Positions 31,390 to 46,200 of a stretch of 64,000 nt of DNA are shown one piece after another. This stretch comes from Chroococcidiopsidaceae cyanobacterium YX2bin18. GTDB taxonomy: Bacteria > Cyanobacteriota > Cyanobacteriia > Cyanobacteriales > Chroococcidiopsidaceae. The notes beneath the pieces are model-generated. The model made no database searches. It saw nothing but the letters and a program-made list of their open reading frames with translations, and was not told the DNA's origin. Both the position numbers and the translations under genes were made by a program. The stretch spans positions 62,001-126,000 of the forward strand of contig JAUJND010000001.1 in assembly GCA_030446505.1 (NCBI GenBank). The letters run 5' to 3'. Each line of letters begins with the position of its first letter. The first letter of the stretch is position 1.

Positions 31390-31603
31390 GCTTAATTTTG
31401 CACAACCGAATTTCTGCAAAAGAGCAAGATAACTTGCCTCTAGGACGCGGTCTAGCTGATATCAAACGCCTCCAACAACTGCAACAAACCTGTTACTGAG
31501 CGATCAGCTGCCGGATAGCAGTGAAGAGGTTTTTCTAATTTTTAACTTTTGACTTCTGTGTAAAGTTTCTGGCTTCTTCATAATTCTTATTTTTGACTAA
31601 ATT

Positions 31604-31675
31604 TTTCCCCACTCATTCCCCATAGTTTCCCCAAGATAGTTGAACTTTTCCCCAAAGGGGTAGAGGTTTTCCCCA
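31604..31675 (+). repeat. Five phased TTTCCCCA-type direct repeats
   Basis: CCCC cores begin at 31607, 31618, 31629, 31650, 31671 (spacing 11, 11, 21, 21). Confidence 0.85.
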
Positions 31676-32019
31676 AGCTGTTACGACAATGAATGGTTTA
31701 TCAAGATAGCTGTGGATTTCTGGTTAGTAAACTCAAGCATTACAAAACACGCAGATTTTATGAATAAATGTAAAGAAAACTAAGCTCAAATACTGATTAT
31801 TGCGTAAGTGGTTTGTTTCGCTCAAGCTAACTGTAATATTGCGTAACATTGACAACCCTACCCCCTCTTGCCGCACAATAATGCGACTTGCTTCTTAAAG
31901 TTTGGCAACCGCTTCCTTGTAGTGAAGCAGTACAGAACTGCTTTACTCCAGGCTGTGGGAGTGTTTGGTATTGGACGTCCGGTGTCTTTGTTATTTACTT
32001 GTCCTAGAGGAGATTTTGA

Positions 32020-32281
32020 ATGAACGCCAGCGTTAGTATCTGACCGGGAGATCCCAGAAGAACTACATGAATCGCTCAAAAGCTACTTAGAAACCCATCC
32101 GGACTGGGATCAAGACCGATTGTTTACAGCGGCACTGTCGCTATTTTTGCTCCAAAATGGCAACGGCGATCGCCGCGCAGTCCGGGTTTTATTTAGAAAG
32201 CCTATTTCACCACTGCGGTTAGATAATCCTCAGGACAAATCCTCAATATACTGCTCCTGGGTGTCGGAATTAATAGTCTGA
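32020..32281 (+). pseudogene. DUF2811-like protein (frameshifted)
   Basis: MNASVSI / REIPEELHESLKSYLETHPDWDQDRLFTAALSLFLLQNGNGDRR. Confidence 0.6.
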
Positions 32282-32594
32282 GTGTGGGCATGGCAATATA
32301 ACAGTGACTCAGCAACTAGTGCAGCCGTTACATTTTTGGTATTTATCCGGGACTAATGCAATAAGTTGCTGTGTGCCTTCTAGAGCAGATGTACTGCCAA
32401 AATTTCTAGCAATTAAAACTTTGGCAGGGATTCTTTGAGCACGTAACTACCAAACACTCACTCACAAAGCTGTACCATGGTCTGTCCAACTGCTACATAT
32501 CCACTCTCATCTATTTGTTGTATATCCACATTCTAAATACTTCATTTTCAGTATGGATATCACCTAAAGTGATTCTTTTTAGGAAGATGATGTC

Positions 32595-33292
32595 TTACTG
32601 TTGGCTTTGACTCGGAGCTTCAAACTTATAGCCAACCCACTGTCTGAATCACAATTGGCTGAGTTGCATCAATTTCAATTTTCTTGCGAATTTGACCAAT
32701 ATGAACATCTACAACTCGCTGATCGCCAACATATTCGTAGTCCCAGACCTCTTGAATTAGCTCAGAACGCCGCCAAACTCTACCTGGATGGCTAGCTAAA
32801 AAACGCAAAAGGTCAAATTCGAGAGCGGTCAAAGGTATTAGTTGATTGTTAATCATCACTTCCCGCCGCCCGATCAATCACTAGCTTTTCAAAAATAAGA
32901 CGTTGCTTTTCTGCTGTAGTGACAGCCCGCTGGCGCTTCAAAATTGCCCTACGCGAACTCTCAACTCCGCTAAACTAAATGGCTTAGCTCAGATAGTCAT
33001 CTGCACCTTGGGAAAAGCCGTGAATCTTTGTCCGCTTCGTCAGCCCGACTAGTCAGCATGAGCACAAAAACCTTGGTGCGGGTCATTTCTTCGCAGATGT
33101 TATAGCCAATCGCGTCTGGCAAATTTACATCCAAAAATTACCAAGTCTGGATTAAATTGCTCAAACATTGTAAGGGCAGTCTTGCCGTCTTCGGCAGACT
33201 TGATAGTTCTGCTTGGACAAGAAGCGTTGGATTAAAGTCCGGATTGCAGGATCGTCATCAACGACAAGAATCTTGGCGAGAGCCATAGCCAT
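32595..33292 (-). pseudogene. OmpR-family response regulator (receiver + winged helix), multiple frameshifts
   Basis: MAMALAKILVVDDDPAIRTLIQRFLSKQNYQV; PLTALEFDLLRFLASHPGRVWRRSELIQEVWDYEYVGDQRVVDVHIGQIRKKIE. Confidence 0.85.
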
Positions 33293-33740
33293 CACTTTGC
33301 ACAACAAATGAAGAGGATAAACAAGCTGATGAGATAAGCGGTAGTAATTGGGAACAATAAGATTCACAAGGCTAAAGCAATAAATTCCTATTTACCTTGA
33401 TGATAATTTATTCAGCATCTTAGACAATTATCAGCCCATACTCTGGGAATGCCAATAACTACTTGATATTCATCCACTTTTAAAGTTGGTATTAGTCCTT
33501 AAAGAAAGGAGTAGGAGCAATCTACCCCAGAGGCTTTCTTTATTAAACGAACGCTGTTAAGGAACACTGAAGTTGTTGGCATATGTTAAATTGGCTATGG
33601 TAACAGTGCTGCTTGTTAAATTGACAAATTTGTAGCCCTGATAGGAAGATAATTCAATCTCACAAATTCTTTCGACCAGCATAAAACCTAAAACCATTGT
33701 CTTTTCCACTGGCTACCCCTGGCTGGAGGCTATAGTCAGC

Positions 33741-34270
33741 ATGAGCGATCAAAATAACTACGAGGTGCTTGAGGTAACAGAAGACGCTACATTCGATGAA
33801 ATTCAGGATGCTCGTAGTCGCCTTTTACAGCAATACAGTGGCGATCATAAGCATCTAGATACGATTGAAGCGGCTTACGATGCGATATTGATGGAGCGCT
33901 TACGGATGCGCAAGAAGGTAAAATTAAGGTTCCAGAAGGTATCCGGTTTGCCGAGCGCCTTTCGCAATCACCTCCTAAACAAAGCGCTGTTACTGTTAAA
34001 CAGTCGCCTGCTTGGTTACAAAATCTACGTGATACGCCGAGTTCAACAGATATTCTGTTGCCTGGTGGTTTATTTTTGGTTTTAAGCGCCCTGACTGTCT
34101 TTTACACTGCTGCGGGTGTTCAAACTTTGCAGTTTGGCTTAATTGTCGGTGTTGGCTTAAGTCTTTACTTTCTTAAGCGTAAGGAACAAAAATTTGGTCG
34201 CGCTGTTCTGCTAACTGTCTTGAAGCCAATCCGCAGGATTAGTTGTGGGAGGTTGCTGGCAGCTTACTAG
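33741..34270 (+). pseudogene. CPP1-like (J-domain-like) membrane protein, frameshifted
   Basis: NYEVLEVTEDATFDEIQDARSRLLQQYSGD; later-frame TM segments PGGLFLVLSALTVFYTAAGVQTLQFG. Confidence 0.75.
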
Positions 34271-34406
34271 AGGAGCAAATAGTCAGCATCAATTTGACAA
34301 TTGAGCAGTTTTCTACAGTGTTGACATTTATCCTACTTTGGCTGATTAGCAGCTTCTTACGCTAGTGCGACATTGCTTTCACCTCTCCCTTTTTGCCGCT
34401 TGTAGG

Positions 34407-35119
34407 TCAAAGTCCTAAAGTTTCTTTTTCCACGGAGCGCAAAACTAAATCTACCGCCTCGCTCAGGTCTTTAACAATTAAGTCTGGCTGGTAGAGTTCA
34501 AGTTGAGCGCGATCGCGGATGCCACACAGCACTGCCATGATCTTGACACCGTGCTTTTTATTAATAATATCCGCTTCTGTATCTCCCACCATCCAAGCGT
34601 CATCAGCGGCAGGAAGTTCTGCTAATGCTCGTTCCATCAGTAGTGGTTTTATCATCAATGTCACGAGTTTTCTGGTAATCGTTAGCCAAGACAGTAACAA
34701 CGATCTTTGGGAAAAAATCTGCCTAAATCGTGCTGGTTAAAGGCATAGTCTAGTTCGCGGACGCGGCGCATAGTCATCACCGCTAGATCAACTCAGGTTG
34801 AACTTTTCAGTGCTGCTAATTGTTCCAGGCGCGAGGCAGTCGTATTGGAAGTAAGGTAGTGTATGTACAGTTTCCCGTCGCAACTGGGCAAATTGTTGCG
34901 CGCTTTTCAGGCCGTCTAGTCCAGAAATAGTGGCGATTTGTTTTTCAAGGAACGCTGACGCTTTAACTGCCAAAATTCTGCTTTACTGAGTTGTCGCACT
35001 GGCTGCTCCTGGATATCGGTCGAGTCCAAACAAAATTTATAGACACTGTAGTAGCGCTGGGAAACATCAATAATCGGACCATCAAAATCTGTATTAAAAG
35101 TCTTAACATTGTGAAACAA
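34407..35119 (-). pseudogene. HAD-family hydrolase, frameshifted
   Basis: NTDFDGPIIDVSQRYY..., LDGLKSAQQFAQLRRE, DAWMVGDTEADI. Confidence 0.75.
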
Positions 35120-35217
35120 ATGTACATTTACGACTTCCTCTTAAATGAGTTCAGTTTTAAATTTTAAATTTCTAATCAGCGGGTTTTGAATTATTAATCT
35201 AGTCGGCATCTTGGAGA

Positions 35218-36252
35218 CTACCTCGTTTGATCTGGTTCACGTTCAATAGCTTCAAATAAAGCACGGAAGTTGCCTTCGCCCTTCGAAACCTGGAGCCCTG
35301 TTTTCTCGCTCAATTAACTCAAGAAGAAGGTCGGCTGTCCAAAAATTGGCTGGGTGAAGGTCTGAAGTAGCACGGCATCGGGATTAGTGTCTTGCCAGTC
35401 AACTAAAATCTCTTGTTGGGCAATTTCCCAAGTTCAGCCGCAGAAAGAGAGAAAATTTTGGCGTGACTGCAATTGCGTGTTGTAGTAACTGGGGGTACTG
35501 GCAAGAAAGATACGCCTGAGAGGCAGAATTGAGCGATTACTTGCACAATATTGGGCGTTTGTAAAGCAATATGCTGAATTCCTGCTCCGCGATTTACGTC
35601 TAAAAATTCTAATTTGGGAATTAGGTGGATGCTGGTTGATTGATTGGGAATTGGACTGCGTTATTATGCGAAACCATGACTTGGCTGTGAACGGAGCGAT
35701 CAGTTTGAATTTTAAAGGCTGGTTTGGAACGAAAAATCAAAGTGTTTTGATTTACAACGGCACGCTCTAGGTCAACAGCAGCGACGTTTAGTACCAGCTG
35801 ATCACCAGTAAAGTATCGGCTGCTGAGTGTTGAGTATAGGTGCTAGATATTCAGCAAAGGGCAATGGGCAATAAGACTCGGTTCATTAGTATGAGTTGGT
35901 AAAGAACCCCAAGCGGCAATTTTGCCCCCACTTATTCCCATCTTGAATTTGGTGTTGCGGTTGCAGGACTTGCTGCCCCTGCGTTAGGCTCTAGTCATTA
36001 CTGCTTCCACATCTGCCACACACAAAAGCAATGTCATAACACCAGGCGGATACTGACGCAAAACTGAGCTACGGGGCTAAGTGGCGTGAGTGGTGAAGAT
36101 AAAACAAATTTAACTGAACCATTTTTAACTACTTCAGTGCAGGTGTGAGAACTAATACCATTGAAGCTACTGTGAAAAACCCATTTTGGCGCACAAACCA
36201 GTCGCGCGATGCTGGCATCTTCTGCATAGAAGTGAACGTGATCAATTTTCAT
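35218..36252 (-). pseudogene. 4-hydroxyphenylpyruvate dioxygenase-like gene, heavily frameshifted
   Basis: MKIDHVHFYAEDAS at N-terminus; GAGIQHIALQTPNIVQV-type sequence and HPPD-like C-terminus in broken frames. Confidence 0.65.
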
Positions 36253-40716: not shown

Positions 40717-40740
40717 GGCGGGGGGACGCTTCCCCCCGCC
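40717..40740. repeat. Perfect 10-bp-stem palindrome within coding sequence
   Basis: GGCGGGGGGA-cgct-TCCCCCCGCC. Confidence 0.85.
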
Positions 40741-40750
40741 ACTCTCGGCG

Positions 40751-40950
40751 GAAGCAAGTATTTCTGATTATTGGTGATTTAACTTAATATAGAATTAACA
40801 GGATGGTTCAAGCGAACATGATCATAATTTACAGGAAGCTGCCCCCAGCGACTCGCCGCTGAAGCAAGTATTTCTGATTATTGGATATTTAACTTAATAG
40901 AGAATTACCTGGAAGTTTACAGCGAACCTTATCAAGATTTACAGGATAAG
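40751..40950 (+). repeat. Imperfect tandem duplication, 110-bp period
   Basis: GAAGCAAGTATTTCTGATTATTGG at 40751 and 40861; similarity continues about 90 bp. Confidence 0.85.
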
Positions 40951-45702: not shown

Positions 45703-46200
45703 ATGAATCTCTCTATTGGTGACACATTCGTAAAAATAGCTTCTACCTTATTTATTGCCGTAGCTGCCATGTTCACGGGTTGTGCCTCAGATCCCAGTTC
45801 GCGCTCAGTGCAGGATTCTACACAGGTAAAAGAGACGCAGCCAGGACAGGTAAAAGAGACACAGGCGGGACAGGTGAAGGAGACGCAGTCGGGTCTGGCA
45901 TCCTTTATTAGCGAGGCATTTCAGGGAAGGAAAACTGCTAGTGGCGAAATTTTTGATAAAAACGAGCTTGTAGCAGCGCACCCTTCATATCCAATGGGTA
46001 CAGTTATGCGCGTAACAAATTTGGAGAATCAGCGTGTAGTTGAGGTGCGGATTAACGACCGAGCCTCCACAGCGAATCGCGAGTCAGGTCTTATCATTGA
46101 TCTGTCACCTATAGCTGCGGAGAAACTGGGGTTTGTTAAGGACGGTAAAGTGCGTGTCCGTACCGAGGTGCTTGAATGGGGAGACAAACGTCGGGGTTAG
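45703..46200 (+). CDS. RlpA-like double-psi beta-barrel lipoprotein
   Basis: Lipobox-like TGCAS; GRKTASGEIFDKNELVAAHPSYPMGTVMRVTNLENQRVVEVRINDRA. Confidence 0.88.
   Translation: MNLSIGDTFVKIASTLFIAVAAMFTGCASDPSSRSVQDSTQVKETQPGQVKETQAGQVKETQSGLASFISEAFQGRKTASGEIFDKNELVAAHPSYPMGTVMRVTNLENQRVVEVRINDRASTANRESGLIIDLSPIAAEKLGFVKDGKVRVRTEVLEWGDKRRG
45823..45894 (+). repeat. 3 x 24-bp in-frame tandem repeat encoding QVKETQxG
   Basis: Three adjacent units seen directly. Confidence 0.9.

What the first reader, a model, noticed from the sequence alone, without database searches (positions are those of the whole stretch)
31604..31675. Helically phased array of TTTCCCCA repeats
CCCC cores of five same-strand (T)TTCCCCA(A) motifs begin at 31607, 31618, 31629, 31650 and 31671: spacings 11, 11, 21, 21 bp, so all lie on nearly the same helix face (about 10.5 bp/turn). 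Coding, terminator or simple-repeat explanations do not fit. It lies in the intergenic region upstream of the DUF2811-like gene. Inference: a cooperative binding array for a regulator or nucleoid/partition-type protein.
Basis: partly seen in the sequence, partly recalled or inferred. Interest (0 to 1): 0.6.

Follow-up and report, generated by a model that had tools for sequence, protein, structure and literature searches.

The report
DnaA-box array upstream of DUF2811
The phased TTTCCCCA repeats are a variant of a cluster of binding sites for the replication initiator DnaA that most cyanobacteria keep in front of one small uncharacterised gene, far from the known replication origin, and that disappears when a species loses DnaA.

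Summary
In detail: five same-strand (T)TTCCCCA motifs at 31603-31675, spaced 11/11/21/21 bp; none of 100 random 64-kb sequences came close. Footprinting identifies it. In relatives across the class Cyanobacteriia the same positions carry TTTTCCACA, the published cyanobacterial DnaA box. The variable base is A or C in all but one box, and all 138 spacings in 38 arrays keep helical phase. In this genome boxes 3-5 have drifted to CCCCA. The array belongs to a module: conserved AT element, DnaA boxes, inverted box, promoter-like block, DUF2811 gene. Copies of the module sit on Nostoc plasmids. It is separate from the published-type oriC beside dnaA, which this genome also has. dnaA and DUF2811 co-occur in 149 genomes (118 both, 23 neither, 4+4 discordant). 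Of 22 genomes without detected dnaA, 21 lack a strong array match. Two dnaA-less genomes that kept DUF2811 lost only the boxes. Best explanation: an extra-oriC DnaA assembly site controlling DUF2811, a DnaA-linked gene of unknown function. Binding and function are not shown experimentally; a titration/reactivation site or an auxiliary origin remains possible.

The parts
31576..31594 (+). Conserved AT element (consensus TTTGYAATTCTTATYWTT); role unknown, possibly an unwinding or promoter-type element
   Evidence: Near-invariant in 38 aligned arrays and in 68 named genomes; persists with 1-2 mismatches in dnaA-less G030 and G535
31603..31611 (+). Box 1, TTTTCCCCA (weak DnaA-box form, CCCCA in 36 of 38 arrays)
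31615..31622 (+). Box 2, ATTCCCCA (CCCCA or CCACA in relatives)
31626..31633 (+). Box 3, TTTCCCCA here; TTTCCACA in most relatives
31646..31654 (+). Box 4, TTTTCCCCA here; TTTTCCACA in most relatives; absent in some families
31667..31675 (+). Box 5, TTTTCCCCA here; TTTTCCACA in most relatives
31710..31718 (-). Inverted box: AATCCACAG on the - strand (TGTGGAT or TGGGGAT on + in relatives)
31835..31889 (+). Conserved promoter-like block with TTGACA (31849-31854) and CACAATAATG (31874-31883), about 140-170 bp before the DUF2811 start
   Evidence: Conserved in 68 named genomes and in a S. elongatus-like genome; promoter role inferred
32020..32220 (+). DUF2811 gene (PF10929), frameshifted near both ends in this genome; intact in relatives (65-79 aa)

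Best explanation
The array is an extra-oriC DnaA-box cluster that forms the upstream control region of the DUF2811 gene. DnaA binds the canonical TTTTCCACA boxes 3-5 and extends cooperatively onto the weak, helically phased CCCCA boxes 1-2 beside the AT element. The resulting oligomer controls transcription from the conserved promoter-like block about 170 bp downstream, so that DUF2811, probably a small DnaA-pathway or DnaA-response protein, is made in step with DnaA level or activity. Shown by sequence: identity with the published DnaA box, phase conservation, linkage to DUF2811 including on plasmids, and co-loss with dnaA. Inferred: DnaA binding at this site, cooperativity, transcriptional control, and the role of DUF2811. 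In this genome boxes 3-5 have drifted to the CCCCA form and the DUF2811 reading frame is broken, so the unit may be decaying here.
For: Boxes in relatives are TTTTCCACA, the published cyanobacterial DnaA box (PMC4674748). Variable base A or C in all but one box and 138 of 138 spacings in phase in 38 arrays. dnaA and DUF2811 co-occur: 118 both, 23 neither, 4+4 discordant of 149. Strong array matches in 15 of 15 dnaA+/DUF2811+ genomes tested; none in 21 of 22 genomes without detected dnaA. In G030 and G535, which lost dnaA but kept DUF2811, the boxes are gone while the other elements remain. The array stays with DUF2811 when the upstream genes change, and four Nostoc plasmid copies of DUF2811 carry AT element plus boxes.
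Against: No binding or expression data. The boxes lie some 175-250 bp upstream of the promoter-like block, far for classical control. Two genomes (G524, G542) have dnaA but no DUF2811 and only weak array matches. G039 has the array with no dnaA found (95% complete; its sister G492 has dnaA). Co-occurrence is not corrected for kinship and no control gene was run. The small-genome family f34 has dnaA and DUF2811 paralogs but mostly no array match.
Confidence: 0.55

Rival explanations
1. DnaA titration or reactivation locus (working like E. coli datA or DARS): the array mainly sets free or active DnaA, and DUF2811 encodes a helper acting there. Transcriptional control is secondary.
For: Chromosomal position varies freely while the cluster is conserved; mixed strong and weak phased boxes; usually one strong copy per chromosome.
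Against: The array keeps strict linkage to one gene and its promoter-like block, and travels with it to plasmids, which a pure titration site would not need.
Confidence: 0.2
2. Auxiliary or former replication origin: boxes plus AT element form an unwinding site used in some lineages, for example in species with several origins.
For: Boxes in one orientation beside an AT-rich conserved element; several-origin replication is reported in Nostoc 7120 and Synechocystis (PMC7198777).
Against: A separate cluster beside dnaA exists in this genome. In G119 the sampled GC-skew minimum is about 170 kb away. No skew switch at the array in the window. The AT element outlives the boxes after dnaA loss.
Confidence: 0.13
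3. Binding array for another protein that recognises TTCC[A/C]CA, for example an OmpR/PhoB-type response regulator, which often uses 11-bp direct repeats.
For: 11-bp spacing of boxes 1-3; a broken response-regulator gene lies at 32626-33367.
Against: Consensus equals the DnaA box, and loss tracks dnaA in several families.
Confidence: 0.07
4. Chance cluster or neutral decay product with no present function in this genome.
For: In this genome DUF2811 is frameshifted and boxes 3-5 deviate from the consensus.
Against: Cluster not reached in 100 random sequences; conserved class-wide; lost selectively with dnaA.
Confidence: 0.05

Closest known systems
Cyanobacterial oriC (dnaN- or dnaA-flanking DnaA-box cluster; PMC4674748, PMC5987646)
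   Same: Same box sequence TTTTCCACA, several boxes in a short intergenic stretch, AT-rich element nearby
   Different: Not next to dnaA or dnaN, present in addition to that cluster, tied to DUF2811, not at the sampled GC-skew switch
Intergenic DnaA-binding clusters of Bacillus subtilis that regulate transcription (Ishikawa 2007, cited in PMC7198777)
   Same: DnaA boxes outside oriC, in front of genes
   Different: Different gene, conserved across a class, phased strong/weak layout, found also on plasmids with its gene
E. coli datA and DARS loci (from general knowledge)
   Same: Extra-oriC DnaA-box cluster, position free on the chromosome
   Different: No IHF/Fis sites tested; strict linkage to a gene and promoter-like block
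Ordered DnaA-box arrays of E. coli oriC (PMC4285127)
   Same: Weak boxes beside strong nucleation boxes; whole-turn spacing changes tolerated while part-turn changes are harmful, matching the phase conservation seen here
   Different: Not an established origin; all array boxes in one orientation plus one inverted box

Membership tests
DnaA-box cluster (cyanobacterial type) | Several copies of TTTTCCACA or one-mismatch variants | tested here: met
   Relatives carry TTTTCCACA at boxes 3-5; the window carries the one-mismatch form TTTTCCCCA
DnaA-box cluster (cyanobacterial type) | Depends on presence of dnaA over evolution | tested here: met
   Array absent in 21 of 22 genomes without detected dnaA; boxes erased in G030 and G535
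DnaA-box cluster (cyanobacterial type) | Bound by DnaA | not testable with these tools
   Needs EMSA, footprint or ChIP
oriC | Next to dnaA or dnaN | tested here: not met
   0.2-2.7 Mb from dnaA in complete genomes; neighbours are DUF3082/ispE and DUF2811; dnaN position not searched
oriC | At the switch of GC skew | tested here: inconclusive
   Not at the sampled minimum in G119, no switch in the window; skew is weak in these genomes
oriC | Replication starts there | not testable with these tools
   Needs marker-frequency or ARS assay
DnaA-regulated promoter region | Boxes linked to a conserved promoter and gene | tested here: met
   Linkage kept across lineages and on plasmids; promoter inferred from conservation
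DnaA-regulated promoter region | Transcription responds to DnaA | not testable with these tools
   Needs expression data
datA/DARS-type locus | Changes DnaA-ATP/ADP state or free DnaA level | not testable with these tools
   Needs biochemical and genetic assay
OmpR/PhoB-type tandem site | Two or more direct repeats at 10-11 bp | tested here: met
   Boxes 1-3 at 11 bp, but motif and dnaA co-loss point to DnaA

The most novel reading that the evidence does not exclude
Array plus DUF2811 is a previously undescribed, ancient cyanobacterial DnaA module: DnaA assembles on a phased strong/weak box array to control (or be controlled by) DUF2811, a DnaA-specific accessory or feedback protein. This would be the conserved extra-origin job of DnaA in species where DnaA is dispensable for replication.
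Probability: 0.45. Interest if true: 0.85.

Novelty: new variant of a known kind. Interest (0 to 1): 0.68.

Why it matters
Several cyanobacteria keep dnaA although it is dispensable for replication, and the authors who showed this write that DnaA's function there remains unclear (PMC7198777). This site and gene give a concrete candidate answer: a conserved DnaA-box array coupled to an uncharacterised gene that comes and goes with dnaA. It can be tested in Synechococcus elongatus, Synechocystis and Nostoc laboratory strains. It also gives DUF2811, which no paper in the searched library mentions, a first functional hypothesis.

Tried and rejected
Rfam scan for a structured RNA in the intergenic region: only a chance-level match far below its family's threshold. 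DnaA specificity change in this genome as the cause of the CCCCA boxes: DNA-contact segments of DnaA are unchanged and its dnaA-flanking cluster keeps TTTTCCACA. Endosymbiont with lost dnaA (like Nostoc azollae, PMC2900214): rejected, since dnaA is intact here (462 aa) and the nearest named relatives are Gloeocapsa/Chroococcidiopsidaceae. Array as main oriC: GC skew and location do not fit. Link with ispE/DUF3082: rejected, because that synteny is broken elsewhere while DUF2811 stays. Fold of DUF2811: AlphaFold2 model poor (mean pLDDT 57, three helices) and no PDB relative, so a ribbon-helix-helix-like look of the sequence stays a guess; no fold search was run on so poor a model. DUF2811 in phages: none. 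Literature searches for a cyanobacterial extra-oriC DnaA cluster upstream of this gene found none; Zhou et al. 2011 and Ohbayashi et al. 2016 could not be read.

Full report
OBSERVATION. In 100 first-order Markov sequences of 64 kb no 75-bp stretch held more than two TTCCCCA. Genome-wide the phased pair TTCCCCA-N12-16-TTCCCCA has four matches, three of them in this array, and none for the reversed control.

FOOTPRINT. A DNA search of 40 related genomes with the intergenic region matched the array stretch as well as the DUF2811 gene. Aligned relatives show this layout: TTTGCAATTCTTATTTTT, then TTTTCCCCA (box 1), 11 bp to TTCCCCA or TTCCACA (box 2), 11 bp to TTTCCACAG (box 3), 21-22 bp to TTTTCCACAG (box 4), 21 bp to TTTTCCACAG (box 5), then an inverted box CTGTGGAT or CTGGGGAT. 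TTTTCCACA is the published cyanobacterial DnaA box, with assays reported on the oriCs of Anabaena 7120 and Cyanothece 51142 (PMC4674748). So the window's array is a DnaA-box cluster in which boxes 3-5 have changed from CCACA to CCCCA; the nearest held relative (G001, a Gloeocapsa assembly) keeps CCACA. Across 38 arrays the variable base is A or C in all but one box, and all 138 spacings (9-12, 21-22, 32, 43 bp) lie within 1.5 bp of a multiple of 10.5. Spacings are partly inherited, so this is not 138 independent tests, but indels and box losses respect the phase. A comparable rule is described for E. coli oriC: whole-turn changes between boxes are tolerated and part-turn changes are not (PMC4285127).

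NOT THE KNOWN ORIGIN. This genome has an intact dnaA (462 aa) with a separate TTTTCC[A/C]CA cluster in the region downstream of dnaA, where oriC lies in several published Nostoc-type genomes (L059). Among the listed box sites genome-wide, only these two places form clusters (100 of 119 sites listed). In complete genomes the array lies about 0.2 to 2.7 Mb from dnaA. In the 2,593,857-bp genome G119 the sampled GC-skew minimum is near 200 kb and the array at 371 kb. GC skew is weak in cyanobacteria, so this is evidence, not proof.

A MODULE WITH DUF2811. The stretch between array and gene also holds a conserved GAGTTTTTNTTAAG-type block (degenerate in the window) and a strongly conserved TTGACA...CACAAT[AG]ATG block. 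A S. elongatus-like genome (G071) shares boxes, inverted box and the promoter-like block. Upstream genes differ between lineages while DUF2811 stays. DUF2811 paralogs occur on 13 plasmid records. Six were examined: four Nostoc copies carry the AT element and boxes, one Acaryochloris copy carries boxes only, and one Acaryochloris copy has neither.

LINK TO dnaA. In 149 genomes of the order, dnaA (PF08299) and DUF2811 (PF10929) are both present in 118 and both absent in 23. Only dnaA: G035 (a dnaA fragment with a stop), G481 (61% complete), G524, G542. Only DUF2811: G030, G039, G480 (75% complete), G535 (Fisher p 4e-19, not corrected for kinship). Losses fall in several families (f7, f14, f17, f65, f70, and G085 of f23), with contrasts inside f23 and inside genus g23 of f17, so they are not a single event; the number of independent losses was not determined. 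The array model R1 (sequence only) gives E of about 1e-10 or better in all 15 dnaA+/DUF2811+ genomes tested, in G035 (visibly decayed) and in G039, and in none of the other 21 genomes without detected dnaA. At class level, the three complete genomes without dnaA lack any match. R1 also hits other DnaA-box clusters weakly, so only strong hits are read as the array. The small-genome family f34 is an exception: it has dnaA and DUF2811 paralogs but mostly no array match.

NATURAL EXPERIMENT. G030 and G535 (family f13, about 99% complete) lost dnaA but kept DUF2811. Their AT element (1-2 mismatches), TTAAG block (0-1) and -35 block (0-2) persist, yet no sequence within one mismatch of TTTTCCMCA remains in the 120 bp where four dnaA+ members of the same family carry 4-5. 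G480 agrees for the boxes but is incomplete and diverged. Loss of DnaA thus appears to remove selection on the boxes specifically. It also suggests that the AT element has some role beyond DnaA.

MECHANISM (inferred). DnaA nucleates on strong boxes 3-5, oligomerises over the phased weak boxes 1-2 toward the AT element, and the complex controls the DUF2811 promoter. What DUF2811 does is unknown: the predicted fold is poor, there is no solved relative and no paper in the library names it. Co-loss suggests that it works with or in response to DnaA.

THIS GENOME. DUF2811 is frameshifted near both ends and neighbouring genes at 32-36 kb are broken. With boxes 3-5 off consensus, the module may be decaying here. 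The assembly is 73.5% complete, and base-calling errors cannot be excluded as the cause of the frameshifts.

VERDICT. Real, conserved, and best read as an extra-oriC DnaA-box array coupled to DUF2811: a new variant of a known kind. It is interesting because DnaA's function in DnaA-independent cyanobacteria is described as unclear (PMC7198777). Limits: no experiment, no phylogenetically corrected test, no control-gene co-occurrence, and two key older papers (Zhou 2011, Ohbayashi 2016) could not be read.

Noticed in passing
window 32020-36000: A run of broken genes (DUF2811, a response regulator split at 32626-32877 and 33161-33367, a HAD-like hydrolase in pieces at 34407-35119) directly after intact genes: no open frame of 150 codons or more in 4 kb. 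Pseudogenes or local assembly errors.
   Followed up: partly
L311-L316 (plasmids of Nostoc and Acaryochloris): DUF2811 paralogs on large plasmids, most with the upstream DnaA-box module; one (Nostoc C057) lies next to ParM/StbA and near ParA genes.
   Followed up: partly
L030, L161, L159 and window 31576-31594: The AT element TTTGCAATTCTTATTTTT stays recognisable after dnaA and the boxes are lost, so it has a separate unexplained function.
   Followed up: partly
window 31870-31889: The promoter-like block contains a small palindrome CGCA-CAATAA-TGCG shared with a S. elongatus-like genome; possibly an operator.
   Followed up: no
family f34 genomes (G137, G144, G168, G228): Small 1.6-2.9 Mb genomes hold two or three diverged DUF2811 paralogs and mostly no array match although they have dnaA.
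   Followed up: no
window 40724-40946 and 45822-45893: Tandem repeats: a 110-bp unit x2 and a 24-bp unit x3.
   Followed up: no
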